From NCBI RefSeq assembly GCF_031456545.1, contig NZ_JAVDUV010000002.1, positions 930,001 through 994,000 on the forward strand: a stretch of 64,000 bases of DNA, read 5' to 3'. The translations under genes were made by a program, and so were the position numbers. Below the pieces are notes generated by a model, which did not search any database, was not told the origin of the DNA, and saw nothing but the letters and a program-made list of their open reading frames with translations. This DNA is from Agromyces sp. 3263 (lineage in GTDB: Bacteria; Actinomycetota; Actinomycetes; Actinomycetales; Microbacteriaceae). This document shows, in pieces, positions 34,035 to 48,296 of the stretch (its first letter is position 1; each line of letters starts with the position of its first letter).

Positions 34035-34041
34035 GTTTCGG

Positions 34042-34115
34042 TTGCGGGGGCAGGATTTGAACCTACGACCTCTGGGTTATGAGCCCAGCGAGCTACCGAA
34101 CTGCTCCACCCCGCG
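34042..34115 (-). tRNA. Initiator tRNA-fMet (CAU), copy 1
   Basis: A 74-nucleotide cloverleaf with anticodon CAT. It has the two initiator marks: the unpaired C1-A72 at the acceptor end, and three G-C pairs (GGG/CCC) in the anticodon stem. The 3' CCA is not encoded; the following bases are CCG. The sequence is identical over all 74 positions to the copy at 58962-59035. Confidence 0.95.
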
Positions 34116-34277: not shown

Positions 34278-37200
34278 CTATCGCACGCCGATGTTGACGG
34301 AGTAGGTCTGCCCGTCGTCCAGACGAACGCCGATGCGATAGTAGTTGCCGCCCGACGGGGTCTTCCAGTTGTAGCCGTACTGGGAGCCCTCCAATCGATA
34401 CGTGCTGCCGCTGTCGGCGGCCACCGAGTAGAGCGACTCGTCGACGGGCAGGTTCATGGAGGCGCCCTTGGCCGGGGCCAGCCATGCCGGTGCGACATTC
34501 GTCGGTACGACCGTCCCGCTCGCGTTCTTGAGCTGGAGCTTGACCGGGATCGTGCTCCCGCCCTTGAAGACGCTCGTCGAGGTGCCGACCTGGTGTGCGG
34601 TGTCGTTGATCGGCTGCAGGAATCCGTCGAACCGGTAGATCACCCGGAAGCTCCCCGTCGTCGTTGCCGTGTTCCCGGCCGTGTCCGTCGCCCTCGCGGT
34701 GTAGGTGAAGGTGCCGACCCCGTTGGGAGTTCCTCCGGAGATCGTGACCACGCACGATCCCGCAAGGCCGGAGAAGCCATCGCCGGCCGTGCAGCTTGCC
34801 GGAGGTACGGCGCCGAGCGTGTAGGTGCCGCCGGCAACGTTGACCACGGCGATGGTGGGCGCCTCGGTGTCGATGTTGATGCCGGATACCGCGGTGACTG
34901 CCGTGTTGCCGGCCTTGTCGGTCGCGGTGCCGCTCGCAGAGTTCGCACCGTTGGCGGTGAGGATCACATCATCGGGGCAGGTGGCCACTCCGGAGCGGCC
35001 GTCGGAGCAGGTGAAGTGAACCGTGACCGGCCCCACATACCAACCGTTGCCACCCTGCGTGCCACTGACGACCGCACCGCTGATGGTCGGCGCCGTCTTG
35101 TCGAGTCTGATGGTCACCGCGTCGGTTCCCACGTTGCCCGCGGTATCCGTCGCCGATCCGACCAAGACCTGCCCGTCGGTCTCGGTGGAGACCGTCACGG
35201 GGGCGGTCACGTCGGCGACGCCGGATCCGGCATCGTCGTCCTTGGCACCGAAGGTGACCGTGACGTCGCTCCTGTTCCAGTCGTTCGCGTTGGGCACGGG
35301 TGACAGCGTGTGGGTGACCATCGGGGCGATGTTGTCCCACTTGAGTGCGACGGCGTTCGAGGCCTCGGTGTTGCCCGCGATATCGACTGCCCAGTAGTGC
35401 ACGGTGCCGATACCGCTTCCGTCGAGCGGGACACTGATCGTCTTGGCTGCACCTGCTGCCACCTGCTCGGCGCCGCCGTCGATCCTGTAGTGGATCTCCT
35501 TGACCCCCGACAGACCGGCCTGGTCGGTGGCCGCCAGCACGACATTCGCCGTCGCACCCGTGCACCAGCCGTTGGTCTTGGTGCACTGGTTGTTGGCTGT
35601 CGTGCTCGGGGCTGATCCGTCGATGTTGATGCCGCCGATGGTCTTTCCGGCACTGAGGTTGCCCGCCTTGTCGCCGGCCGGGTCGCTGGTGATGGCCTGG
35701 CCGGCTCCGTCGCCGGAGATCACCGCGCTGGTCGGGCAGGATGCCACCCCTGACAGTGCATCCGTGCAGGTGAAGTCCACCACCACCTGGTCGCGGTACC
35801 AGCCGGCGGCATTCGGAGTCGTCGTCGGACCGCCGTCGATGTGCGGCGCGGTGCGGTCGATGTTGATTCCGTTCACCGATGCCGTCGCCGTGTTCCCCGC
35901 CTTGTCGAGGATGCTGGCTGAGGCGCCCAGGTCGTTGCCCTCGCCGCTGATCGTGCTGTCGGCCGGTTGCGTCGACGGGTCGATGCCCGAGAGCGCGTCG
36001 TTCCCCGTCCACTCGATCGTGACATCGCCGTTGTACCAGCCGGCGCCATTGGCATCGACCGTCGCGGCGCCGACGAGCGTCGGCGCGGTCTTGTCGATGT
36101 TGATGTGGTCGACGATCGTCGAATTGACGTTGCCGGCGACGTCCTGGGTGTCGCCCTGGACCTGCTGGTCGGCGCCCTCGCTGGTGAGCGTTCCATCGGG
36201 ACCGCAACCGGCGACTCCGGACTCGGCGTCGGTGCACGTGAAGGTCACGCCGACGTCCGTGTTGTTCCAGCCGAAACCGTTCGCCGCCGGAGACGCCACG
36301 CCGACGATGGATGGGGCGACATCGTCGACGTTCACGATCGTCGTCCGCTTCGCCTCCGCGTTGCCGGCGAGGTCGACGCTCCAGTAGGTGATTGAGTGGC
36401 TCCCTGTGGCGAGCTCCGCGGTGAACGGCACGCCGTACGTCTGGGCTCCGCCACCGTCGATCTCGTAGTAGGTCGCCGAAATGCCCGACTCGGCATCGTC
36501 AGCGTCGAATGCGACCGGGATGCCGCTCATGACGAACCAGCCGCTGGCCGGCGAGATCGGGTTGATCACCGTCGTGACCGGCGGCACGTCGTCGATCTTG
36601 AGCGTGACGCTGTTGACGGTCGCATCTTCGCTGTTGCCCGCGACATCCGTGCTCCAGAACGCGATGGTGTGCGTGCCCTTCTGGGTGTATGGGAAGGCGC
36701 CGGTGTAGGGCTGGGCCGCGGCCCCGTCGATGCTGAAATACGTCGCCGCCACGCCGGAGAGTGTGTCGTGTCCGATCAACGCGACCGGGACTGCGTCGGC
36801 ATACCAACCGCTCGGGAGCGGGTCGGGAATTGTCGCGGTGGTGGTCGGTGCGGTGCGGTCGATCTGGATGCCGTCCACCGTCGTGCTTGCGGTGTTCCCG
36901 GCGACGTCCGTGCATGTGGCCGACGACGCCAGGTTGCCGCCCTCCCCCGTGACCGTGTCATCCACCGGCTCGGCTGCAACCCCGGACAGCGCATCCGTGC
37001 ACGACCAGAGCACCGTCACGTCATCGGCATGCCAACCAGGCGAGAACACCGCAGTGACGACCGGCGCCGTCGTGTCGACGTTGATCCCCGACACCCCTGC
37101 GCTCGCGCTGTTCCCAGCCGCATCCGTCGCGGTGCCAGTCACCGACTGGTTCGCACCCTCGCCCAGGATCTGGGCACCCGACGCGGAGGCCAGACCCGAG

Positions 37201-38930
37201 AGCGCATCGTTCGCGGAGAAGCTCACCGTCACGGCATCCCGATACCAACCGGCGCCGTTGGGCGCCCGATCAGCCGAAGCCGAGATCGTCGGCGCGGTCT
37301 TGTCGATGCTCACCACGGCCGTATCCGACGCGGAGTTCCCCGCATTGTCGGTCGCGGTGCCCGTCACCTGCTGGGAAAGACCCTCAGACGACTGCGTCAC
37401 GGGTGCCGTGCACGACGCAACACCGGAACCGGCGTCAGCACACGTGAACGTGACCGTCACGCCCTGGTTCGACCACGCACCCTCCGAGTACGTCAGCGGC
37501 GTGAACGAGTGACCGATCGTCGGGGCCGTCTTGTCGATCTTCACGTGGGCCGTTTGCGCGGCCTCGACGTTGCCGGCCCGATCGGTGCTGAAGAATGAGA
37601 TCGAGTGATCGCCCTCGCTCGACAGGATCACGCTCGTCCCGCTCTGCACCGCTCCGCCATCGATCGCGTACGACGTCGACCCGATGCCCGACAGATTGTC
37701 GGATGGCGACAGCACCAACGTCACACTGCCGCTCGTCCAGGTGTTCGAGGACCCGCTCACTCCCGTCACCGGAGCCGTCCGGTCGACATTCACCGGCACG
37801 CTCGACGCCGTCCTCGTGTTCCCGGCCCGGTCCGCGATCGACGCGCTTGCGGTCAACGCGCTGCCCTCACCGGTGATGAGGCCATTCGCGGGCTGCGTCG
37901 ACGGGTTGATCCCCGACAGCGCGTCGACCCCGGACCAGCCGATCGCGACATCGCCCTTGTACCAGCCGTTGCCGTTGGCCGAGGTGGTCGGTGTGCCGGT
38001 GAGGGTCGGCGCCGTCTTGTCGATGCTGATGCCTGAGACACCCGCACTCGCAGCGTTGTCTGCATTGTCCACTGCGGTTCCGGACACCGACTGGTTCGCT
38101 GCCTCGGTCGAGAGCACCACCGTGCCGCCACCGGTGCAGGACTTGATCCCGGAGAGCGCGTCCGCGCAGGTGAGCGAGACCGTGACATCGGAGTTGTTCC
38201 ACCCGGCCGCGTTCGCGGCCGGAGCGGCGCTTCCGGTGATGGTCGGGTTCATCTTGTCGAGCTTGACGACCACCGCGCCGGTGCCGCTGTTGCCCAGTCG
38301 GTCGCTTGCCGTGGCGTTCTTCGTGACACCCGCAGTGTTCGAGTTCACGCTCTCCGTGGCGGGGGTGGGCCCGGTGCCGATCCCCGAACCGGCATCCGTT
38401 GCCGACCAGGTGATACCGACGTTGGCCTTGTTCCACCCGGCTGCGTTGGCGGCAGGTGCCAGGGACGCGTTCAACACCGGCCCCGTGTTGTCGAGGGTGA
38501 ACGATGCCTGCAGCGAATTGGTTTGGCCCGTGCATTTCCCCTGCGCGTTCACGTTGGGCGAGGCGAACACGGTCACGGCCTGGGCGCCGTCGCCCGCACC
38601 GGCCGTCGTCGTGAAGGTCCAGTTCGTCTTGGCCCCGGCAGATTGGTCGTGTGCGGTGAACGCGCCGGCGACATCCACGCACCTGGTGTCACTGCTCGTG
38701 ATGGCCGTGAGCGTCAGCGCCCCGCCCTGCTTCGCATACAGCGTGCCGCCCGACGAGACGGTGCCGGCACCCCCGGTGAACGTCGCGGTCGTGACGGTCG
38801 AAGCGAAGGCCGGCATGCCACTGAGCATGGCCGCGACCACCGCCCCCGATGCGATCACGGCAAGCCAGCCGCGCATCCGGCCCTCCGGAACACGAACTCG
38901 TCTCGTCGAAATGCCGCTGGAAGCGCGCAT
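34278..38930 (-). CDS. Giant secreted protein of ~16 Ig-like modules with C-terminal PxKF domain
   Basis: A 1550-residue exported protein. ATG 38930 follows a strong GGAGG site and opens a signal peptide with a long basic n-region and a core ending SGMPAFAST. After an N-terminal domain (about 40-150) come about sixteen repeats of 65-90 residues. Each has a TAP entry, GWY/GWN, a DALSG- or DAGSG-type turn and a DxAGN exit, the pattern of OmpL47/Ig-like repeats in bacterial surface proteins. The last 110 residues match the PxKF domain (STIPVKLQLKNASG). There is no LPxTG or membrane anchor. It is probably an extracellular adhesive or matrix protein; the role is inferred. It has no partner genes. 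Confidence 0.85.
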   Translation of the reverse strand: MRASSGISTRRVRVPEGRMRGWLAVIASGAVVAAMLSGMPAFASTVTTATFTGGAGTVSSGGTLYAKQGGALTLTAITSSDTRCVDVAGAFTAHDQSAGAKTNWTFTTTAGAGDGAQAVTVFASPNVNAQGKCTGQTNSLQASFTLDNTGPVLNASLAPAANAAGWNKANVGITWSATDAGSGIGTGPTPATESVNSNTAGVTKNATASDRLGNSGTGAVVVKLDKMNPTITGSAAPAANAAGWNNSDVTVSLTCADALSGIKSCTGGGTVVLSTEAANQSVSGTAVDNADNAASAGVSGISIDKTAPTLTGTPTTSANGNGWYKGDVAIGWSGVDALSGINPSTQPANGLITGEGSALTASASIADRAGNTRTASSVPVNVDRTAPVTGVSGSSNTWTSGSVTLVLSPSDNLSGIGSTSYAIDGGAVQSGTSVILSSEGDHSISFFSTDRAGNVEAAQTAHVKIDKTAPTIGHSFTPLTYSEGAWSNQGVTVTFTCADAGSGVASCTAPVTQSSEGLSQQVTGTATDNAGNSASDTAVVSIDKTAPTISASADRAPNGAGWYRDAVTVSFSANDALSGLASASGAQILGEGANQSVTGTATDAAGNSASAGVSGINVDTTAPVVTAVFSPGWHADDVTVLWSCTDALSGVAAEPVDDTVTGEGGNLASSATCTDVAGNTASTTVDGIQIDRTAPTTTATIPDPLPSGWYADAVPVALIGHDTLSGVAATYFSIDGAAAQPYTGAFPYTQKGTHTIAFWSTDVAGNSEDATVNSVTLKIDDVPPVTTVINPISPASGWFVMSGIPVAFDADDAESGISATYYEIDGGGAQTYGVPFTAELATGSHSITYWSVDLAGNAEAKRTTIVNVDDVAPSIVGVASPAANGFGWNNTDVGVTFTCTDAESGVAGCGPDGTLTSEGADQQVQGDTQDVAGNVNSTIVDHINIDKTAPTLVGAATVDANGAGWYNGDVTIEWTGNDALSGIDPSTQPADSTISGEGNDLGASASILDKAGNTATASVNGINIDRTAPHIDGGPTTTPNAAGWYRDQVVVDFTCTDALSGVASCPTSAVISGDGAGQAITSDPAGDKAGNLSAGKTIGGINIDGSAPSTTANNQCTKTNGWCTGATANVVLAATDQAGLSGVKEIHYRIDGGAEQVAAGAAKTISVPLDGSGIGTVHYWAVDIAGNTEASNAVALKWDNIAPMVTHTLSPVPNANDWNRSDVTVTFGAKDDDAGSGVADVTAPVTVSTETDGQVLVGSATDTAGNVGTDAVTIRLDKTAPTISGAVVSGTQGGNGWYVGPVTVHFTCSDGRSGVATCPDDVILTANGANSASGTATDKAGNTAVTAVSGINIDTEAPTIAVVNVAGGTYTLGAVPPASCTAGDGFSGLAGSCVVTISGGTPNGVGTFTYTARATDTAGNTATTTGSFRVIYRFDGFLQPINDTAHQVGTSTSVFKGGSTIPVKLQLKNASGTVVPTNVAPAWLAPAKGASMNLPVDESLYSVAADSGSTYRLEGSQYGYNWKTPSGGNYYRIGVRLDDGQTYSVNIGVR

Positions 38931-39021
38931 GAGAACCTCCGGGAATAGCGGCGCTCGGGTACGCCACCAAGGCCCAAAGTCTGTTGCGCCCAAATGATCG
39001 GGTCAATCCCCCGTTCATGGG

Positions 39022-39174: not shown

Positions 39175-39909
39175 ATGACCAACCCTCCGGCACCACCGGT
39201 GCTGCGAGCCGTCGACCTGACGCGGAGTTACGGCAGGGGCCAAGCGCGATTCGACGCGCTCCGAGGCGTCTCGCTCGAGGTCCGCCGCGGCGAGTCGCTC
39301 GCGATCGTCGGCAAGAGCGGCTCGGGCAAGTCCACGCTCATGCACCTGCTCGCGCTGCTCGACCGGCCCGACTCCGGTCGGGTCGAGATCGACGGCCAGG
39401 ACGTCGGCGCTGCTCCGGCGGCCGTGGTGAACCGCCTTCGGAACGAGCGGTTCGGTTTCGTCTTCCAGCAGTTCTTCCTCACCGCCGGCCAGACCGTGCT
39501 CGAGAACGTGAGCCTGCCGCTCGTCGTGGCGGGGGTCGCGCCGCGCGAACGGCGACGTCGCGCGCTCGCGTCGCTCGACGCACTCGGGCTCGCCGACAAG
39601 GCCGGCAACAGGGCCAACGACCTGTCGGGCGGCCAGAAGCAGCGCGTCGTGATCGCCCGCGCCCTCGTCAACGAACCCGACCTGATCTTCGCCGACGAAC
39701 CTACCGGCAACCTCGACACCGCCACCGGACACCAGGTGGACGACCTGCTCTTCGGCCTCCAGCGCGAGCGCGGCATCACCCTCGTGGTCGTGACGCACGA
39801 CGAGGAGCTCGCCGCGCGCTGCGATCGCCGCATCACCATCGCCGACGGGCTCATCGTCGGCGAATCGGATGCCGCGGCATCCGTCATCGCGGAAGGAGCG
39901 GGTCGATGA
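39175..39909 (+). CDS. ABC exporter ATPase (MacB/LolD type)
   Basis: A 244-residue ATPase: Walker [11 protein letters not shown]-loop FVFQQFFL, signature LSGGQKQR, Walker [13 protein letters not shown] and the His switch VVTHDEE. The GNLD ending and length are typical of the MacB/LolD/FtsE group that pairs with FtsX-domain permeases. It follows GAAGGGAAC. Its stop overlaps the permease start (ATGA at 39906-39909), and a TetR gene ends the operon. Likely export of a drug, peptide or lipid; the substrate is unknown. Confidence 0.94.
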
Positions 39910-41207
39910 GGGCCGCCGATGTCATCACGAGCGCCACGCGGAACGCGTTCCGCTCGAAGCTCCGCACGACGCTCACCGTGCTCTCGCTGTTCGTCGGTGC
40001 ATTCACCCTGACGCTCACCACGGCGCTCGGCGCGGGGGTCAGCGACTACGTCACGAAGCAGGTCGCCTCGCTCTCCACCGGGGACGTGCTGCTCGTGAGC
40101 CCCGCGACCACGACCGACACCACCGACGGTCCGGCGGAGTACGACCCCGACGGCCGCCAGCAGTCGTCTCAGGCCAACCCGCTCGGCGGTGGCACGCTCA
40201 TGAGCGACGATGACCTCGACGCGATCGCCGCGATCTATGGCGTGGACCGGGTGGAACCCATCCGCTCGATCTCCGTCGACTGGGTCGCGGCATCCGACAC
40301 GTCCACCGACACGAGGTTCGAGCTCGACGTGAACCCCACCTCGTCCATCGGACGCAGTGACCTCGTCGCCGGAGCGCAGCTCGACCAGGAGGCCGACGAG
40401 GCGCAGGTCATCCTGCCCGAGGACTACGTCGACACGCTCGGGTACGACGATGCCGACGACGCGATCGGTCGCACGGTGGAACTCGGGTACACCGTGGCCG
40501 ATGGCGGCGAGCAGAGCACCGAGGCCACGATCGTCGGCGTCGCGCGCACCAGCCTGCTCGCCTCGGGGGCCGGGGCCAACCAGGCCCTCACCACCGAGGT
40601 CGCCGACGCGCAGGCCGTGCCGGGGCAGCCCGACGCGTACGCCGTCGCGGTCGCGTACCTCACCGGGTCGGGCGCCGACGGCGCCGTCACCGACGACGAC
40701 GTGACCGAGGTGAAGCTCGCGCTCGCGGATGCGGACCTCGCCGGGCAGACGGTCGAGGACCAGCTCGGCGTCGTGCAGACGATCATCAACGGCATCATCG
40801 GCGTGCTCAGCGCGTTCGCGATCGTGGCCCTCATCGCCGCGTCGTTCGGCATCATCAACACGCTGCTGATGAGCGTCCAGGAGCGCACCAGGGAGATCGG
40901 GCTCATGAAGGCGATGGGCATGTCGAACGGGCGCGTGTTCGGGCTGTTCAGCCTTGAAGCCGTCGTCATCGGATTCCTCGGGAGCGCGCTCGGCGCCCTG
41001 GCGGCCATCGGGGTCGGTACCGCGATCTCGTCCGTCGCGTCGGCCGGCCCCCTTGCCGCCCTGCCCGGGCTCACGCTCCTGCTGTTCGACCCGCTGAGCG
41101 TCGCCCTCGTGATCGCGGCGATCATGCTCATCGCCTTCCTCTCGGGTGTACTGCCCGCCCGCCGCGCTGCCCGACAGGATCCGATCGAGTCGCTACGGTA
41201 CGAGTAG
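39906..41207 (+). CDS. ABC exporter permease with MacB/FtsX domains
   Basis: A 433-residue permease. One N-terminal helix (about 20-45) is followed by an extracytoplasmic MacB-like periplasmic-core domain (about 46-285). Three C-terminal helices form the FtsX domain, with [25 protein letters not shown] between the first two. [17 protein letters not shown] is the typical C-terminal end of this family. It overlaps the ATPase gene by four bases, and the TetR gene follows after 17. Confidence 0.93.
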
Positions 41208-41224
41208 CGGAGGGAGCAGAGAAC

Positions 41225-41869
41225 ATGTCGACCGCACCGGGTGCCGGGCCGCGTCGTCGCGGAGCCGCCGAGACGACCGCCGCCATCGAGCGCGCCGCCG
41301 TCGAGCTCGTGCTCGAGCACGGCTACGACCTGGTGACGGTCGACATGATCTGCGAGGCGGCCGGCGTCTCCCAGCGCACCTTCTTCAACCACTTCAGGAC
41401 GAAGGATGCCGCGCTGCTCGGCGTGGACCTGCCCACCATCGATGAGCGCGCGGCGCGCGCGTTCATCGTGTCCGACGGGCCGCTCCTCGCCGAGGCCGTC
41501 GGCCTCATCCGGATCGACCCGTCGAAGCTGCCCGGCGACCCCGCCGTCATGGCTGAGCGATTCCAGGCCATCTCGACCCATCCGGCGCTGCTCGCCCGGC
41601 AGATGGAACGGCTGGCCGCGATCGAGGGCGAGCTTCGCGAGATCATCGCCCTCCGCCTCCGCCAGCAGTCGGGCAGGGATGGCACGGATGCCGCGTCCGA
41701 CGCCGAGCTCGACGCGCAGGCCGAGCTCATCACCCACATGCTGGCCGGAGTCATGCGCTACGTCGGCGTGGAATGGGCTCGACGGATGCGTGACGGCGCA
41801 GCCCCGCAACCGCCCGACGGGCCCGAGTTCCGCGCCACCCTCGCGGCGGCACTGCGCCGGCTCGGCTGA
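41225..41869 (+). CDS. TetR/AcrR-family repressor
   Basis: A 214-residue regulator. The HTH domain (about 12-62) includes AAVELVLEHGYDLVTVDMICEAAGVSQRTFFNHF, the standard TetR pattern. The rest is an all-helical ligand and dimer domain. A GGAGGGAG site precedes the ATG. As the last gene of the MacB-type exporter operon it probably represses it from the palindrome at 39129-39143 and responds to an exported compound (inferred). Confidence 0.93.
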   Translation: MSTAPGAGPRRRGAAETTAAIERAAVELVLEHGYDLVTVDMICEAAGVSQRTFFNHFRTKDAALLGVDLPTIDERAARAFIVSDGPLLAEAVGLIRIDPSKLPGDPAVMAERFQAISTHPALLARQMERLAAIEGELREIIALRLRQQSGRDGTDAASDAELDAQAELITHMLAGVMRYVGVEWARRMRDGAAPQPPDGPEFRATLAAALRRLG

Positions 41870-41918: not shown

Positions 41919-42785
41919 TCACACCAGCCCGAGTGCGTGCGCGTCGCGTTCGGTGTGGCGCATCCGCTCGGTCGCCGACTCGCCGAGCCGCTCGAAGCAC
42001 GAGGCGATCACCGCTTCGACGAGGGCCATCGCCGGCGTCATCGCATCGAACGGCGACGACGAGTCCGTGGCGCTCGGGAGCACCACCGTCGCCACGGAGG
42101 CGATGGGCGACATCCAGGTGTCGGTGAAGAGCACCACCCGCGTCCGCTTCGCGGCGGCGAACTCGGCCAGCGCCCGGGTCGGCTCCTCATACCGCCGGAA
42201 GTCGAAGAGCACGAGCACGTCGCGGCGGGTCAGGGTGCCCATCTCCGCCGCCCGGCTGCTGGTCTCGTCGGGAAGCATCGCGGCGCCGGGGCGCATCGAG
42301 CGCAGGTGCAGCTCGAGGAACCGAGCGAGGAGCTGGCTGTAGCGGCCGCCGGCGAGCCGGATCTGCGCTCGCGGATCCGCGAGCGCCTCCGCGCACGCCT
42401 CGATGTCGTGGGGCGGCACCGTGGCGAACGTGCGCTCCACGGAGGACACGGCGATGGCGGCGGGATCGGCCGGCTCCGCCGGCGAGGGGTGCTCGACCCC
42501 GCGGTCGTAGATCGCGAGCGGCGAGGCCGAACGCTGGTCGAGGTCGTCCCTGAGCGCCTGCTGGAACTCGGGGAATCCCCGGTAGCCGAGCCTCGTCGCG
42601 AATCGCACCACCGTGGGCCCGCTCACCCCCGCCCGGGAGGCCAGCCGCGCCACCGTCTCGAACCCGGCGGACGGGTAGCCGTTGAGCAGCGCCCGCCCGA
42701 CCTTGCGCTCGGCGGGCGAGAGCTCGCCCATGCGCGAACGGATCGCCTCGGCCACGGACGTGACCGGCGCCGGTTCACTCGCCAT
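41919..42785 (-). CDS. MurR/RpiR-family transcriptional regulator
   Basis: A 288-residue regulator. The N-terminal HTH_6 domain (about 8-80) contains LSPAERKVGRALL, ARLASRAGVSGPTVVRFATRLGYRGFPEFQQALR. A SIS-type sugar-phosphate-binding fold fills about 115-260. It is the last gene of the importer/peptidase operon, 12 bases after the M20 gene, and most likely controls that operon and the divergent cyanophycinase gene. In peptide and amino-acid loci RpiR proteins often sense a pathway product, but the ligand here is unknown. Confidence 0.92.
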   Translation of the reverse strand: MASEPAPVTSVAEAIRSRMGELSPAERKVGRALLNGYPSAGFETVARLASRAGVSGPTVVRFATRLGYRGFPEFQQALRDDLDQRSASPLAIYDRGVEHPSPAEPADPAAIAVSSVERTFATVPPHDIEACAEALADPRAQIRLAGGRYSQLLARFLELHLRSMRPGAAMLPDETSSRAAEMGTLTRRDVLVLFDFRRYEEPTRALAEFAAAKRTRVVLFTDTWMSPIASVATVVLPSATDSSSPFDAMTPAMALVEAVIASCFERLGESATERMRHTERDAHALGLV

Positions 42786-42797
42786 CGTCGGCTCCCC

Positions 42798-44048
42798 TCA
42801 CGAGATCACGTCACAGCGTAGTGGCCGGCGGTGCGCGAGGTCGGCGATGAGCGCGGCGAGGAGCGCGACCCGCTCGGGCACGCTGTCGAGGTCGAGCCAT
42901 TCCGTCGCAGCGTGGTCGTCGCCGCCGATCGGCCCGAGCCCGTCGAGGGTCGGCACGCCCACGGCAGCCACGAAGTTGGCATCGGACGCGCCGCCGGTCG
43001 GACCGGCCTGGACGCGGAAGCCCAGGCGGTCCGCGACATCCGCCGCCGCGGCGACGACCGGGGCGGTCGACGCGGCCTCCAACGGCGGGCAGACGTCCTG
43101 CCGGACGGCGAAGACGCTGGTGCCCGCCACCTTGACGGCCGACGCCCGCTCGTCGATGGCGTCGAGCACCGCCTCGAGGTCGTCAAGGGTCCGCGCGCGG
43201 ACCTCGACGAGGAGCTCGGCCGCGTCGGGGACGATGTTCGGGCGGCTCCCGGCCGAGACGTTGCCGACGTTCACCGTGACGCCGGGGCGGCTGGCGTTGA
43301 GGGCGAGCAGGTCGAGCACCAGGTGCGCGGCCTCCGCCGCTGCGTTCGCGCCGCGCTCGGGCTCGATGCCGGAGTGCGCCGCTCGGCCCCTGACCTCCAG
43401 GCGCACGTCGGCGATGCCCTTCCTCGCCGACACGAGGTCGCCGTTCTCCCTCGCGCACTCCAGGGACAGGGCGACATCCGCCTCGCCGGCCAACGTCGCG
43501 AGCTGCGCGCGGCTCGCGGGCGACCCGACCTCCTCATCGGGGGTGAGCGCGATGATGAGCTCGCCGTAGCCGCGCCATCCGCTGGCTTCGAGGGCCCGGG
43601 CCGCGGCGAGACCGGCCAGGAGCCCGCCCTTGTCGTCGCTGACTCCCGGTCCGTACGCCCGCCCGTCCGACTCCCGATACGGCCGGCGTGCCGCCTCGCC
43701 GGTGGGGAAGACCGTGTCCATGTGCCCGAAGAGGAGCACCGTGGCCGTGCCGGTCCCACGCCGACGGGCCACGACGACATCGCCGCGGCGGACACCACCG
43801 ACGGGGTCGGTGGCCGTGCGGGCGACGGTGAGCCCGTCGGCAGCGAGGCGGCCCGCGCACCAGTCGGCGACGCGATTCACGCCGTCGACGTCGGCGCTGC
43901 CGGAGTCGATCGAGACGAGTTCGGCGAGGTCAGTGCGGTAGCCGGCGACCGCGCCCTCGACGGCGGCACGGAGGGACGCGAGCCAGGTCGGCGATTCGGA
44001 CGGGAGGGTGGTGCGAAGCCCGACCGGTCGCGAAAGATCGAGCGGCAC
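42798..44048 (-). CDS. M20 metallopeptidase (carboxypeptidase G2-like)
   Basis: A 416-residue cytoplasmic dizinc hydrolase. Metal ligands and catalytic residues are visible in order: FGHMDTVFP, GPGVSDDKGG, TPDEEVGS (catalytic Glu pair), LECARENG and the late GGDDHAATEW. The lid domain about 205-320 is typical. No signal peptide. Family members remove C-terminal Glu or Asp residues or split unusual dipeptides. It directly abuts the ABC ATPase gene, so its substrate is likely the imported compound. With a secreted cyanophycinase opposite, an Asp-Arg isodipeptidase role is attractive but unproven. Confidence 0.92.
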   Translation of the reverse strand: MPLDLSRPVGLRTTLPSESPTWLASLRAAVEGAVAGYRTDLAELVSIDSGSADVDGVNRVADWCAGRLAADGLTVARTATDPVGGVRRGDVVVARRRGTGTATVLLFGHMDTVFPTGEAARRPYRESDGRAYGPGVSDDKGGLLAGLAAARALEASGWRGYGELIIALTPDEEVGSPASRAQLATLAGEADVALSLECARENGDLVSARKGIADVRLEVRGRAAHSGIEPERGANAAAEAAHLVLDLLALNASRPGVTVNVGNVSAGSRPNIVPDAAELLVEVRARTLDDLEAVLDAIDERASAVKVAGTSVFAVRQDVCPPLEAASTAPVVAAAADVADRLGFRVQAGPTGGASDANFVAAVGVPTLDGLGPIGGDDHAATEWLDLDSVPERVALLAALIADLAHRRPLRCDVIS

Positions 44049-44864
44049 TCAGAGCACCTTCGACAGGAACGACCGCGTGCGCTCCTCGGCCGGCTCGACG
44101 AGCACCTGCCGCGGATCGCCCTGCTCGACGACGACCCCGCCGTCCATGAAGACCGCCACGTCGGCGACCTCCCGCGCGAACCCGATCTCGTGGGTCACCA
44201 CGATCATGGTCATGCCCCGCTCCGCGAGCCCGCGCATGACGTCGAGCACGTCGCCGACGAGCTCGGGGTCCAGCGCAGACGTCGGCTCGTCGAACAGCAT
44301 GACCTGGGGGTCCATGGCGAGCGCTCGCGCGATGGCCACCCGCTGCTGCTGGCCGCCCGAGAGTTGCGCCGGATACGTCCCCGCCTTGTCGCCGAGCCCG
44401 ACCTGTTCGAGCAGGCGAATGCCGTCGTCACGCGACTGGGCCCTCGAACGCCCGAGCACCTGGGTCGGCGCCTCCATCACGTTCTCGAGGGCGGTCATGT
44501 GGGGGAACAGGTTGAACCGCTGGAACACCATGCCGACCTTGCGGCGTTGGGTGGCGACCTCCTTCTCGCGCAGTTCGAAGAGTCGGCCGTCCTTCTCCCG
44601 GTAGCCGACCGTCTCACCGGCGACGCGGATCACGCCCGAGTCGATCTGCTCGAGGTGGTTGATGCACCGGAGGAACGTGGACTTCCCCGACCCCGAGGGG
44701 CCGAGCAGGCACACGACCTGGCCACGCTCGACGGACATCGTGATGCCCTGCAGCACCTCGAGGCTGCCGAAGCGCTTGTGCACCTCGACGGCCTCGACCA
44801 TGGGGCCGGCGGTGGGGCCGGTGGGGTCGGCAGGAGGGGCGGCCTGTGGGGCGGCGGCGGTCAT
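44049..44864 (-). CDS. Polar amino-acid ABC importer ATPase
   Basis: A 271-residue ATPase of the GlnQ/HisP group: Walker [30 protein letters not shown], signature LSGGQQQR, Walker [16 protein letters not shown] and THEIGFA. The first 20 residues are Ala/Pro-rich. The ATG at 44864 overlaps the permease stop in an ATGA. It is followed with no gap by the M20 gene. It energises uptake through the neighbouring permease and binding protein. Confidence 0.94.
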
Positions 44865-45847
44865 GAGGCGGACTCCTTCTTCGAGGCACGCGCGGGCAGG
44901 GTGAGGCTCTGGGTGAACGTGGAGACCCGCGACCCCAGCGTGGGGCGCACGCCGGTGAAGCCGCGGCCGTAGCGGCGCTCCAGCCACATCTGCGGAATCG
45001 AGAGGATCGAGGTCAGCGCCAGGTACCAGATCGCCGCGACGATGAGCAGCGGGATGATCTTGTAGTTCTGGGTGTACGCCTCGCGGATGTTCGACATCAG
45101 GTCGTCACCGGCGACGATGGCGACGAGCGAGGTGCTCTTGAGCATCGTGATCGTCTCGTTGCCCATGGGCGGGATGATCACGCGCATCGCCTGCGGGAGC
45201 ACGATCCGCCGCAGGGTCTTCATCGGGGACATGCCCAGCGAGTGGGCGGCTTCCGTCTGGCCGGGATCCACGGACTGGATCCCCGCGCGCACGATCTCCG
45301 CGGCGTACGCCATCTCGTTGAGCCCGAGCGCGAGCAGCGCGGCCACGGTGGCCGGGATGAGGTCGCTCGTCGTGAACGACCAGAACTCCACCGAGGTGAA
45401 CGGCACGCCGATGACGACCTTCGGGATGAAGGCGCCGATGAAGCCCCAGAAGATGAGCTGCAGCAGCAGCGGCGTGCCGCGGAAGACCCAGATGAAGAGG
45501 GCCGCGGCGATCGAGAGCACCGGGTTCGGCGAGAGGCGCATGACGGCGACCACGATGCCGCCGATGACGCCCACCACCATGGATGCCGCGGTGAGCCAGA
45601 GGGTGATGACGACGCCGCTGAGCGTCAGGGGCTTGAAGAGGTACTCCCCCACCGTCGGGAGGTCGAGGTTCGGGTTCTGGAGGATCGACGACAGGGTCGC
45701 GATGCCGATCACGAGGACGAGCACTGCGGCGATCCAGCGGCCCGGATGCCGCACGGGCACCGCCTCCACGGGTCGGGGGCGGGCGGCGCCCGAGGAGCCG
45801 CGCGGTCCCTCGGGCGCCGTCAGGGCTGACGGCTTCGTTGCGGTCAT
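44861..45847 (-). CDS. Polar amino-acid ABC importer permease
   Basis: A 328-residue permease of the HisM/GlnP family. After a 40-residue cytoplasmic tail it has about five or six helices, the [12 protein letters not shown] motif and the EAA loop [31 protein letters not shown] that docks the ATPase. The family usually carries L-arginine, histidine, glutamine or small peptide-like compounds. One permease only is encoded, so it must act as a homodimer. ATG 45847 lies 34 bases after the binding-protein gene. Confidence 0.93.
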
Positions 45848-45881
45848 GGGTGGTGCTTTCGGTTCGGTCGCGACCGGATGG

Positions 45882-46850
45882 TCACGAGGAGGCGGCGCCG
45901 TTGATGGTGGCTTCGTCGATGCCGATGCCGGTGACACCGTACTGGTCGAGGATGGCTTCGTAGGTGCCGTCGTCCATGAGCGACTGGAGCGCGGCCTGGA
46001 TCGCCTCGGCGAACGCCGGGTCGTCCTTGAGCACGCCGATGCCGTTCAGCGTGGCGTCGTAGCCGTTCGGGGCCTCAGGATCCTCGACGACCTCGAACGT
46101 CTTGCCGTCGTTGGTCGTCTTCGCCACGTATCCGGCGCTCGGCTTGGTGAGCAGCGAGGCGATCGCCTTGCCGCTCGTGATCGCGAGCTGGGCATCCGCG
46201 TCGGACGGGAACTCCGACAGCGCGATGGGCTCCAGTCCGTTCGCCTCGCATTCGCCCTGCCAGACGTCGTTGACCAGGTCCACCTGGCTCGTCGCCGCCT
46301 GCACGGCGACGTCGGCGCCGCAGAGGTCGAGGAAGCCCTCGATGCCCTCGGGGTTGCCGGCCGCGGTCAGGATGCCGGTGCCCGACGCGGAGTAGTCGAC
46401 GAAGGTGAGCACCTCCATCCGCTCGACGCTCGAGGTCATGGCGGTGATGGTCGCGTCGAAGTTGCCGGCCTGCAGTGCCGGGATGATGCCGTCGAACGCC
46501 TGCTGCTCGAACTCGAAGTCGACGCCGAGCTTGGCGCCGATCGCACGGCCGAGGTCGACGTCGACCCCGGTCAGCTCATCGGACCCCTCCTCGGTGAACA
46601 TCTCGAAGGGCGCGTACGGGGCGTCGGTCGCGACCTTGACCGAGCCGGCGTCCGCGATCTCGGGCGGCAGCAGTGCCGCGGCGTCCTCATCGACGGTGAT
46701 CTCGATACCGGCGATCTTCACCGGCTCGGATGCCGCGGGCTCACCCTCGGCGGATGCGGCGGTGCATCCCGTGGCGAGCAGCGCCGTTGCGGAGACCAGC
46801 GTGAGGGCCGCGGTGAGGCGACCAGCGGAGGGAAGTGGGGAACGCGACAT
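45882..46850 (-). CDS. Amino-acid ABC importer substrate-binding lipoprotein
   Basis: A 322-residue SBP of family 3 (PF00497 type). A lipoprotein signal ends LATGC with Cys29. The mature part begins VKVATDAPYAPFEMF and contains GVDVDLGRAIGAKLGVDFEFE, and later DLCGADVAVQAATSQ, typical of polar amino-acid binders. It is the first gene of the operon (SBP, permease, ATPase, M20 peptidase, RpiR) and is divergent from the cyanophycinase gene across 141 bases that hold palindromic sites. Ligand not determinable by eye. Confidence 0.94.
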   Translation of the reverse strand: MSRSPLPSAGRLTAALTLVSATALLATGCTAASAEGEPAASEPVKIAGIEITVDEDAAALLPPEIADAGSVKVATDAPYAPFEMFTEEGSDELTGVDVDLGRAIGAKLGVDFEFEQQAFDGIIPALQAGNFDATITAMTSSVERMEVLTFVDYSASGTGILTAAGNPEGIEGFLDLCGADVAVQAATSQVDLVNDVWQGECEANGLEPIALSEFPSDADAQLAITSGKAIASLLTKPSAGYVAKTTNDGKTFEVVEDPEAPNGYDATLNGIGVLKDDPAFAEAIQAALQSLMDDGTYEAILDQYGVTGIGIDEATINGAASS

Positions 46851-46900
46851 GACATGCCCTTCGTGCGGTTCGTGGGGTGGGGTGTGCTTGCGGTCGAGTA

Positions 46901-46944
46901 TGTAACATCCGTTACAGAAATGCTAGTGATTTCTGTTTCTGTAA
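46901..46944. promoter_or_regulatory. Nested palindromes in the divergent cyanophycinase/importer promoter
   Basis: TGTAAC-ATCC-GTTACA (46901-46916), ACAGAAAT-N7-ATTTCTGT (46914-46936) and TTACAGAAA (46912-46920) opposite TTTCTGTAA (46936-46944) interlock in one AT-rich patch. In such G+C-rich DNA this marks a regulated divergent promoter; the operon's RpiR protein is the best candidate binder. Confidence 0.6.
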
Positions 46945-46991
46945 TGTAGCGTCGCGGCCATCCCCGCATCCGGCGGGCACGAAGGAGTGAC

Positions 46992-48296
46992 ATGAATCGC
47001 ATGCTTGCCCCCATTCTCGCCTCGACGTTGGCCATCGGCCTCGTCGCCGTCGCGGCGCCGGCGCACGCCGCTCCCGGCGGACCGCGCGCACACGGCGCCG
47101 ACCCGCGCGCCGGCTCGCTCGTGCTGATCGGAGGGAACCTCTCGGAGGACGCGGCCATCCTCTCCAAGATCGTGGAACTCGCCGATCCCGACGGCGGCGG
47201 GCCCGAAGCCGCCCGCATCGCGATCATCACGGCGGCGGCGGCCCCCGCGGAGAGCGCTGCGGAGGGATCCGATTCCGCCGAGAACAACGCCCAGGCCAAC
47301 GGCCTCTACTACGCCGAGCTGTTCGGGCGCTATGGAGCCGAGACCTACGTGGTGCCCATCGACGAGGCGGTGGACTTCGACGGAGACTCGTACGTGCCGA
47401 GCAATGCCGACCGTGCCGACGTCGCCGACCAGGTCCGGCAGTCGACGGGCGTGTTCCTCGGCGGGGGCGACCAGATGCGGTACGTCCGCACCCTGCTCGA
47501 CTGCTCGGGAGCACCGGTCGACGAGGCCTACCGCCGGTGCGCCGACACGCCCGTGCTCGGCGCGGTCCGCGACGTGCTCGACGCCGACGGCGTCGTCGCC
47601 GGGGTCAGCGCCGGCCTGACGATCCAGCAGGGCGCCGACATGGTGACCGGCGGAGAGTCCTACCAGGCGTGGCGGGACGGCGGCTCGCCGGGATACCTCG
47701 ACGACCCGACGGCGCTCGCATCGCTGCCGTTCGGCGGCTTCGGCTTCTTCCAGGAGGCCCTGCTCGACAGCCACTTCGGCACGTGGGGCCGACAGGCCCG
47801 CATGATCCGGCTCGCGGACGACACCCACCACCGCCGGATCCTCGGCGTCGACGAGACCACCGCCCTCGCCTATGACCGCTCCACGCGCATCGGAGAGGTG
47901 ATCGGCGAAGCCGGCGCATCCGTGATCGACGTCGAACCGCGCGACGTGCGCGGACAGACCGCACGCGACGTGCGCTGGACGCGGCTCGTCGCCGGCGACG
48001 CGTTCGACTTCGCGCGCGGCACGGCCATCCCCGGCGCGGAGCGGATCACGGCGCCGGCAACCGGTGCCGGACCGGCGGAGGCCGCCGACGTCTGGGACTC
48101 GATCGACGGGCCGGGCAACTCGGGCTCCCTCAGCGACCTGGCCACCGCCCTGGTCGCCTCCTCGGCGACGACGGCCTCGGGCACGAGCTTCGAGACCGCG
48201 CCGCAGTTCCGCACGACCCTCACGCGTGACCGCGCGACGAGCTGGTGGTCGACCGGCGGGTTCGAGCAGCTGCGGGTCGACATCGGCGCCGAGTGA
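46992..48296 (+). CDS. Secreted cyanophycinase-family serine peptidase (S51)
   Basis: A 434-residue exported protein with a clear signal peptide (about 1-27, APAHAAP). Cyanophycinase landmarks occur in order: VLIGGNLSED, FLGGGDQMRY (about 155-164), GVSAGL with nucleophile Ser206, DSHFGTWGRQARM (about 259-271) and LGVDETTALAYD. The family cuts cyanophycin to beta-Asp-Arg dipeptides. The C-terminal 100 residues extend beyond the intracellular CphB length, as in extracellular CphE-type enzymes. It is divergent from an amino-acid importer, M20 peptidase and RpiR operon, which fits polymer scavenging. The true polymer substrate is inferred. Confidence 0.85.
   Translation: MNRMLAPILASTLAIGLVAVAAPAHAAPGGPRAHGADPRAGSLVLIGGNLSEDAAILSKIVELADPDGGGPEAARIAIITAAAAPAESAAEGSDSAENNAQANGLYYAELFGRYGAETYVVPIDEAVDFDGDSYVPSNADRADVADQVRQSTGVFLGGGDQMRYVRTLLDCSGAPVDEAYRRCADTPVLGAVRDVLDADGVVAGVSAGLTIQQGADMVTGGESYQAWRDGGSPGYLDDPTALASLPFGGFGFFQEALLDSHFGTWGRQARMIRLADDTHHRRILGVDETTALAYDRSTRIGEVIGEAGASVIDVEPRDVRGQTARDVRWTRLVAGDAFDFARGTAIPGAERITAPATGAGPAEAADVWDSIDGPGNSGSLSDLATALVASSATTASGTSFETAPQFRTTLTRDRATSWWSTGGFEQLRVDIGAE

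What the first reader, a model, noticed from the sequence alone, without database searches (positions are those of the whole stretch)
41919..48296. Candidate extracellular cyanophycin-scavenging locus with an M20 peptidase
A secreted cyanophycinase-family enzyme (signal peptide, GGDQ, GVSAG, DSHF, VDETTA landmarks) is divergent from an operon of amino-acid SBP, permease, ATPase, M20 peptidase and RpiR regulator. Together they would cut an Asp-Arg polymer outside, import the dipeptide, hydrolyse it and sense the product. Known beta-Asp-Arg hydrolases are isoaspartyl dipeptidase, plant-type asparaginase and CphZ; an M20/CPG2-like enzyme in that role would be new to me. The link is inferred from gene order.
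Basis: partly seen in the sequence, partly recalled or inferred. Interest (0 to 1): 0.75.

Follow-up and report, generated by a model that had tools for sequence, protein, structure and literature searches.

The report
Co-regulated cyanophycin-type polymer scavenging module
A soil actinobacterium carries a conserved, apparently co-regulated gene set that probably cuts a cyanophycin-like nitrogen-storage polymer outside the cell, imports the pieces and splits them with an M20 peptidase that we found no report of in this job.

Summary
A secreted S51 (cyanophycinase-branch) enzyme is divergent from SBP–permease–ATPase–M20–RpiR.

The link is more than gene order. In 60 genomes of the genus (Agromyces), strong S51 hits and the M20 ortholog occur in the same 13 genomes. 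The module recurs in Microbacterium, Leucobacter, Nocardioides, Streptomyces and Kitasatospora, with rearranged gene order and two importer types. A palindrome, TGTAAC-N4-GTTACA, lies before S51 and other module genes: 47 of 47 strong sites in 37 loci (760,599 bases) are within 320 bp upstream of one, some before S51 copies not linked to the operon.

None of the 13 genomes has IaaA, IadA or a CphZ-superfamily gene over cut-off, so M20 is the best candidate dipeptidase; its activity is inferred.

The parts
46992..48296 (+). secreted S51 protein of the cyanophycinase branch, 434 aa; Ser206/His261/Glu288 triad, Gln161, Asp259, Arg267, Arg270 kept; Trp265 in place of CphB Arg178
46901..46916 (.). 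predicted operator TGTAACATCCGTTACA between S51 and the SBP operon; a left half-site TGTAAT starts 39 bp further on (46940), the spacing seen in twin sites elsewhere
   Evidence: half-site read from the sequence
46914..46936 (.). second inverted repeat ACAGAAAT-N7-ATTTCTGT in the same intergenic region; role unknown
   Evidence: read from the sequence
45882..46850 (-). family-3 solute-binding lipoprotein (lipobox LATGC); Thr where paralogs have the Asp that binds a free alpha-amino group
44861..45937 (-). amino-acid-type ABC permease; start between 45769 and 45937
44049..44987 (-). amino-acid-type ABC ATPase; start probably 44864
42798..44048 (-). M20 metallopeptidase, carboxypeptidase-G2 fold, candidate beta-Asp-Arg dipeptidase
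41919..42785 (-). RpiR-type regulator (HTH + SIS), inferred to bind the 46901 operator
   Evidence: operator placement

Best explanation
This is an actinobacterial scavenging module for cyanophycin or a close beta-aspartyl-linked relative. The secreted S51 enzyme releases dipeptides from the polymer outside the cell. The SBP and ABC transporter import them. The M20 metallopeptidase splits them in the cytoplasm at the residue with the free alpha-carboxylate. RpiR controls S51 and the operon through a shared palindromic operator. Shown here by sequence: the genes, their co-occurrence, recurrence with different importers, the shared palindrome, the predicted fold, and the residue changes. Inferred: polymer identity, dipeptide import, M20 activity, RpiR binding and its effector.
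Against: Arg178, reported critical in CphB, is Trp in the window type (26 rows) and Tyr or Ala in the Streptomyces/Kitasatospora derived type (3 and 1 rows), two separate changes. The window S51 scores below the cyanophycinase cut-off. Two of seven M20-bearing genomes outside the genus have the operon but no match to the Streptomyces S51 at E <= 1e-5. No arginine-catabolism gene was seen among the actinobacterial neighbours scanned (a part of all neighbours). M20's nearest solved relative is a glutamate carboxypeptidase. Seven of 37 loci have no site of >= 11 bases. No assay exists.
Confidence: 0.57

Rival explanations
1. The module is a real scavenging unit, but in the window's lineage the W-type S51 has moved to a different polymer or peptide (a cyanophycin variant or another isoaspartyl or Asp-rich polymer), and importer and M20 follow.
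For: Loss of Arg178 in two lineages, both inside M20-linked modules, while R-type S51s sit beside the derived type in Leucobacter, Streptomyces and Kitasatospora.
Against: M20 signature residues (ECAR..G, DGLGPxGGxDH, EWL) are the same in R-type and W-type modules (23 of 23 rows) and the palindrome is of the same kind, which argues for the same product. The SBP has Thr in both.
Confidence: 0.27
2. General peptide salvage: S51 works as an Asp-X peptidase like PepE, the importer takes amino acids or peptides, and M20 is a CPG2-like carboxypeptidase for N-acyl amino acids; the link to a storage polymer is accidental.
For: CPG2 is the nearest solved M20 and PepE shares the fold.
Against: Fold and profile are nearer cyanophycinase than PepE. 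CPG2's Glu-side-chain residues Lys208 and Ser210 (numbers and roles recalled, placed by counting on the alignment) are not kept. CphE-type residues occur in sister modules.
Confidence: 0.12
3. M20 is in the regulon but is not the dipeptidase; another, unrecognised enzyme splits beta-Asp-Arg. (This is compatible with the best explanation's other steps, so the odds overlap.)
For: Opp-type loci also carry two Amidohydro_3 genes whose function is unknown; remote homologs (28-30% identity) lie near two of 24 amino-acid-importer loci, L032 and L034.
Against: No Amidohydro_3 homolog of this kind is in the window at E <= 1e-4, while M20 is in both importer types.
Confidence: 0.25

Closest known systems
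Cyanophycin-scavenging (utilization) loci with IadA or IaaA (Ben Hania et al., as cited in passages and section 6 of PMC10206079); Pseudoalteromonas plasmid examples
   Same: A cyanophycinase, a transporter and a dipeptidase clustered without cyanophycin synthetase.
   Different: Here the peptidase is M20, the importer is an amino-acid-type or Opp-type ABC system (TonB receptor and YfcC in Pseudoalteromonas), and an RpiR regulator with a predicted operator is part of the unit.
Extracellular cyanophycinase CphE (Pseudomonas alcaligenes, passages of PMC3235067)
   Same: Sec signal, 1260-bp gene against 1305 bp here, Ser/His/Glu triad, hydroxyl residue (Thr/Ser) in place of CphB Gln173.
   Different: CphE keeps Arg228 (= CphB Arg178); the window S51 has Trp265 there.
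Cyanophycin dipeptide hydrolase (M14/aspartoacylase-like, passages of PMC10206079; the name CphZ from a passage of PMC12661447 and recall)
   Same: Proposed role: splitting beta-Asp-Arg.
   Different: Unrelated family; its superfamily model PF24827 (taken as a proxy) is found in 2 of 60 genomes of the genus, neither with S51.
Carboxypeptidase G2 (M20)
   Different: Glu-side-chain residues Lys208/Ser210 not kept; invariant ECAR and DGLGP motifs of its own.
Beta-alanyl-lysine dipeptidase PM20D2 and carnosinases (M20)
   Different: Only remote sequence similarity.

Membership tests
Cyanophycinase (S51, TIGR02069 equivalog) | score over the curated cut-off (126.6 bits) | tested here: not met
   74.1 bits for the window protein; five relatives 85-110 bits
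Cyanophycinase (S51, TIGR02069 equivalog) | Ser/His/Glu triad with GGDQ | tested here: met
   Q161, S206, H261, E288 in alignment
Cyanophycinase (S51, TIGR02069 equivalog) | residues reported critical for activity: Gln101, Asp172, Gln173 (Thr in CphE), Arg178, Arg180, Arg183 | tested here: not met
   Four kept, Gln173 replaced by Ser (Thr in CphE), Arg178 replaced by Trp265
Cyanophycinase (S51, TIGR02069 equivalog) | fold | tested here: met
Cyanophycinase (S51, TIGR02069 equivalog) | releases beta-Asp-Arg from cyanophycin | not testable with these tools
   needs an assay
Cyanophycin-scavenging locus | cyanophycinase + importer + dipeptidase, no CphA | tested here: inconclusive
   architecture present and CphA over cut-off 0 of 60 (partial matches to other ligases in all 60); the enzymes' activities are unproven
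Cyanophycin-scavenging locus | IadA or IaaA in the cluster | tested here: not met
   IaaA 0 of 60; IadA over cut-off 0 of 60, with weak amidohydrolase matches in 58 of 60
M20 peptidase | Peptidase_M20 + M20_dimer domains with metal ligands | tested here: met
   109.7 and 78.1 bits over cut-offs; ligand positions kept
Glutamate carboxypeptidase (NF004788) | score over cut-off 349 | tested here: not met
   306.8 bits
RpiR regulator | HTH_6 + SIS | tested here: met

The most novel reading that the evidence does not exclude
The M20 enzyme is a further, evolutionarily unrelated cyanophycin-dipeptide hydrolase (beside IadA, IaaA and CphZ), running in a dedicated RpiR regulon of Actinobacteria. Within that regulon S51 enzymes twice lost the critical Arg178 to take a modified or related isoaspartyl polymer, and some lineages pair an outer R-type S51 with an inner W-type one and an oligopeptide importer.
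Probability: 0.42. Interest if true: 0.76.

Novelty: new variant of a known kind. Interest (0 to 1): 0.62.

Why it matters
It predicts a cyanophycin-type nitrogen-scavenging pathway in soil actinobacteria with no recognised cyanophycin synthetase, names a candidate dipeptidase family at a time when PMC10206079 calls the enzyme of Firmicutes and Bacteroidota undiscovered, and supplies a regulator and operator with which the regulon can be found and tested. The two-fold loss of Arg178 gives a natural experiment on cyanophycinase specificity.

Tried and rejected
A plain CPG2/glutamate role for M20 was judged less likely because the Glu-side-chain residues are not kept. A PepE-like role for S51 was judged less likely because fold and profile are nearer cyanophycinase. 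Arginine-catabolism genes as a clue to the product: none among the actinobacterial neighbours scanned; an agmatinase lies beside two S51 genes in the archaeal Natronosalvus plasmid. Non-actinobacterial S51 relatives (L070-L076): 0 of 7 have module genes in the DNA held. M20 in plasmids at E <= 1e-30: only Kitasatospora. Papers: the searches M20 + cyanophycin + cyanophycinase (5 papers, of which I read only the passages with these words, none linking them), cyanophycin/dipeptidase/M20/Streptomyces (40 papers, 15 listings seen), isoaspartyl dipeptidase + M20 family (1 paper, passages seen), RpiR + cyanophycin (0) and cyanophycinase + glutamate carboxypeptidase (0) gave no report of this role; only open-access PMC text is covered. 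Residue roles and numbers of CPG2 and of LAO-binding protein are recalled.

Control told in full: 2 of 159 control upstream regions reach >= 10 bases of the palindrome (19 reach >= 9). Both belong to the neighbour gene on the other side of an S51 gene's upstream region (L027, L031) and so share its intergenic DNA; they also cap the p-values of the unlinked S51 promoters.

Rows dropped: the weak partial S51 hit G024 was left out of the co-occurrence count. From the residue table: duplicate loci of the same genome, two partial copies (L026/L046), one wrong frame (L141), a shorter L065 call and the annotated Kitasatospora frames (both replaced by re-read frames). In the tree, 8 of the 21 over-cut-off cyanophycinases plus L139 were kept. 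Structure jobs used only window and the search for related loci rows.

Full report

CO-OCCURRENCE. In 60 genomes of the window's genus (Agromyces, since contigs of its members match named Agromyces records), S51 is found in 14; one, G024, is a weak partial hit (E 9.5e-5) and is left out. The M20 ortholog (E <= 1e-60) is in 13 of 60, the same 13. Random assortment would give this with probability 1.9e-13; shared ancestry makes the true number larger, and no species tree was available to correct it. The SBP search gave 19 of 60 at 1e-60: 11 with a copy at 71-100% identity, all among the 13, and otherwise paralogs at 42-45%. The two of the 13 without SBP ortholog (G033, G034) carry an Opp/Dpp-type importer instead (family names from the Leucobacter locus L062). 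In the wider family S51 is rare: 6 of 299 genomes, two of them Agromyces and two weak.

LINKAGE. Of the 13 genomes, 10 have S51 and operon together (G000, G007, G018, G020, G021, G025, G029, G033, G034, G053), one is broken by contig ends (G011), and two have them apart (G022, G058). Gene order differs between these groups. Starting from M20 alone (394 genomes of the class), 9 have the ortholog, 7 outside the genus; 5 of the 7 have S51, and 2 (G1061, G1008) have SBP-permease-ATPase-M20-RpiR but no match to the Streptomyces S51 at E <= 1e-5 (a very remote S51 could be missed). Seven non-actinobacterial S51 relatives show no module genes in the DNA held.

OPERATOR. The S51-SBP intergenic region holds TGTAACATCCGTTACA (46901-46916), the only site with up to one mismatch to TGWAAY-N4-RTTWCA in 64 kb (0.04 expected). 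The pattern was drawn up after one search had shown the window, L025 and the L037 SBP promoter, so it is not blind. Of 20 S51 promoters 17 reach >= 10 of 12 bases, of 8 separate SBP promoters 8, of 159 control upstream regions 2, both of which share an S51 intergenic region. A weight matrix built from 14 linked S51 promoters scores 8 of 8 SBP promoters above all 159 controls, and 5 of 6 S51 promoters not linked to the operon at rank p 0.0125-0.025; the sixth is the second gene of a tandem pair. In 37 loci (760,599 bases) there are 47 sites with at least 11 bases, and 47 of 47 lie within 320 bp upstream of a module gene, zones covering 6.8% of the bases; 7 of the 37 loci have no such site (L029, L030, L031, L051, L056, L144, L156). 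The loci were chosen for holding module genes, so this speaks for placement, not genome-wide specificity. Twin sites 38-39 bp apart occur in L037 (twice), L054, L062 and L155 (twice); in the window a half-site starts 39 bp after the first. That RpiR binds these sites is inferred from its constant presence. Sites also precede Leucobacter M20 genes and R-type S51s of Leucobacter, Streptomyces and L155.

SUBSTRATE. PMC3235067 (passages) states that Gln101, Asp172, Gln173, Arg178, Arg180 and Arg183 of CphB are critical and that the extracellular CphE keeps all but Gln173, which is Thr. 21 of 21 over-cut-off actinobacterial cyanophycinases keep the CphB pattern. In three modules of other families (L155, L159, L160) the S51 is secreted and keeps the CphE pattern entirely. 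Leucobacter (4 loci), Streptomyces and Kitasatospora modules include an R-type S51, in Leucobacter L041, L063, L064, in Streptomyces and in Kitasatospora beside a derived one. The window's S51 and all 26 rows of its type have Trp at 178; the Streptomyces/Kitasatospora derived type has Tyr (3 rows) or Ala (1). The tree needs two changes (quick method with some long branches). Cyanophycin is therefore a good inference for the module and a weaker one for this copy.

COMPARISON. Known scavenging clusters pair cyanophycinase with IadA or IaaA (PMC10206079, passages and section 6). Pseudoalteromonas plasmids show an annotated cyanophycinase, TonB receptor, YfcC and IadA. An archaeal plasmid has two S51s with M28, an Opp importer and agmatinase. 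The present module fills the same plan with M20 and adds RpiR. PMC10206079 notes that the dipeptidase of Firmicutes and Bacteroidota remains undiscovered. Searches for M20 or RpiR with cyanophycin in open-access text found no such report (with passages in 104 and 119-123).

VERDICT. Functional unit: about 0.9. Cyanophycin or a close beta-aspartyl relative as the module's substrate: about 0.65. M20 as the dipeptidase: about 0.5. Overall a new variant of a known kind with a testable prediction.

Noticed in passing
window 39175-41869: ABC ATPase + MacB-like permease + TetR cassette borders the module; orthologs also border the S51 gene or module in G011 (L033), G029 (L035), G025 (L036) and Microbacterium trichothecenolyticum (L054), on different sides.
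   Followed up: partly
window 34278-38993 -: very long (about 1530-1570 aa) repeat-rich protein with a secretion-like N-terminus beside a tRNA-Met gene at 34040-34115.
   Followed up: no
L041/L059, L058, L063, L064 (Leucobacter): R-type S51 proteins of 620-636 aa; the L041 copy ends in a sortase-like LARTGG tail and basic C-terminus, suggesting wall anchoring.
   Followed up: partly
L062:16820-19902 and orthologs in L038, L039, L041/L165, L064, L065: two Amidohydro_3 genes of unknown function follow the Opp-type importer wherever the locus reaches far enough (one in view in L064, locus ends before them in L063); remote homologs lie near the module in L032 and L034.
   Followed up: partly
L146 (Natronosalvus plasmid): haloarchaeal locus with two S51 genes, M28 peptidase, Opp importer and agmatinase: a possible archaeal cyanophycin-scavenging cluster.
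   Followed up: no
L157 (G1061), L158 (G1008): SBP-permease-ATPase-M20-RpiR with no match to the Streptomyces S51 in the genome: possible users of dipeptides released by others.
   Followed up: partly
G000:C1:261423-262010 (L163): second, remote S51-like gene of the window's genome with a GASAG motif and no operator site nearby; weak TIGR02069 hits also in G023 and G054, orthology not tested.
   Followed up: partly
window 46914-46936: inverted repeat ACAGAAAT-N7-ATTTCTGT overlapping the operator; role unexplained.
   Followed up: no
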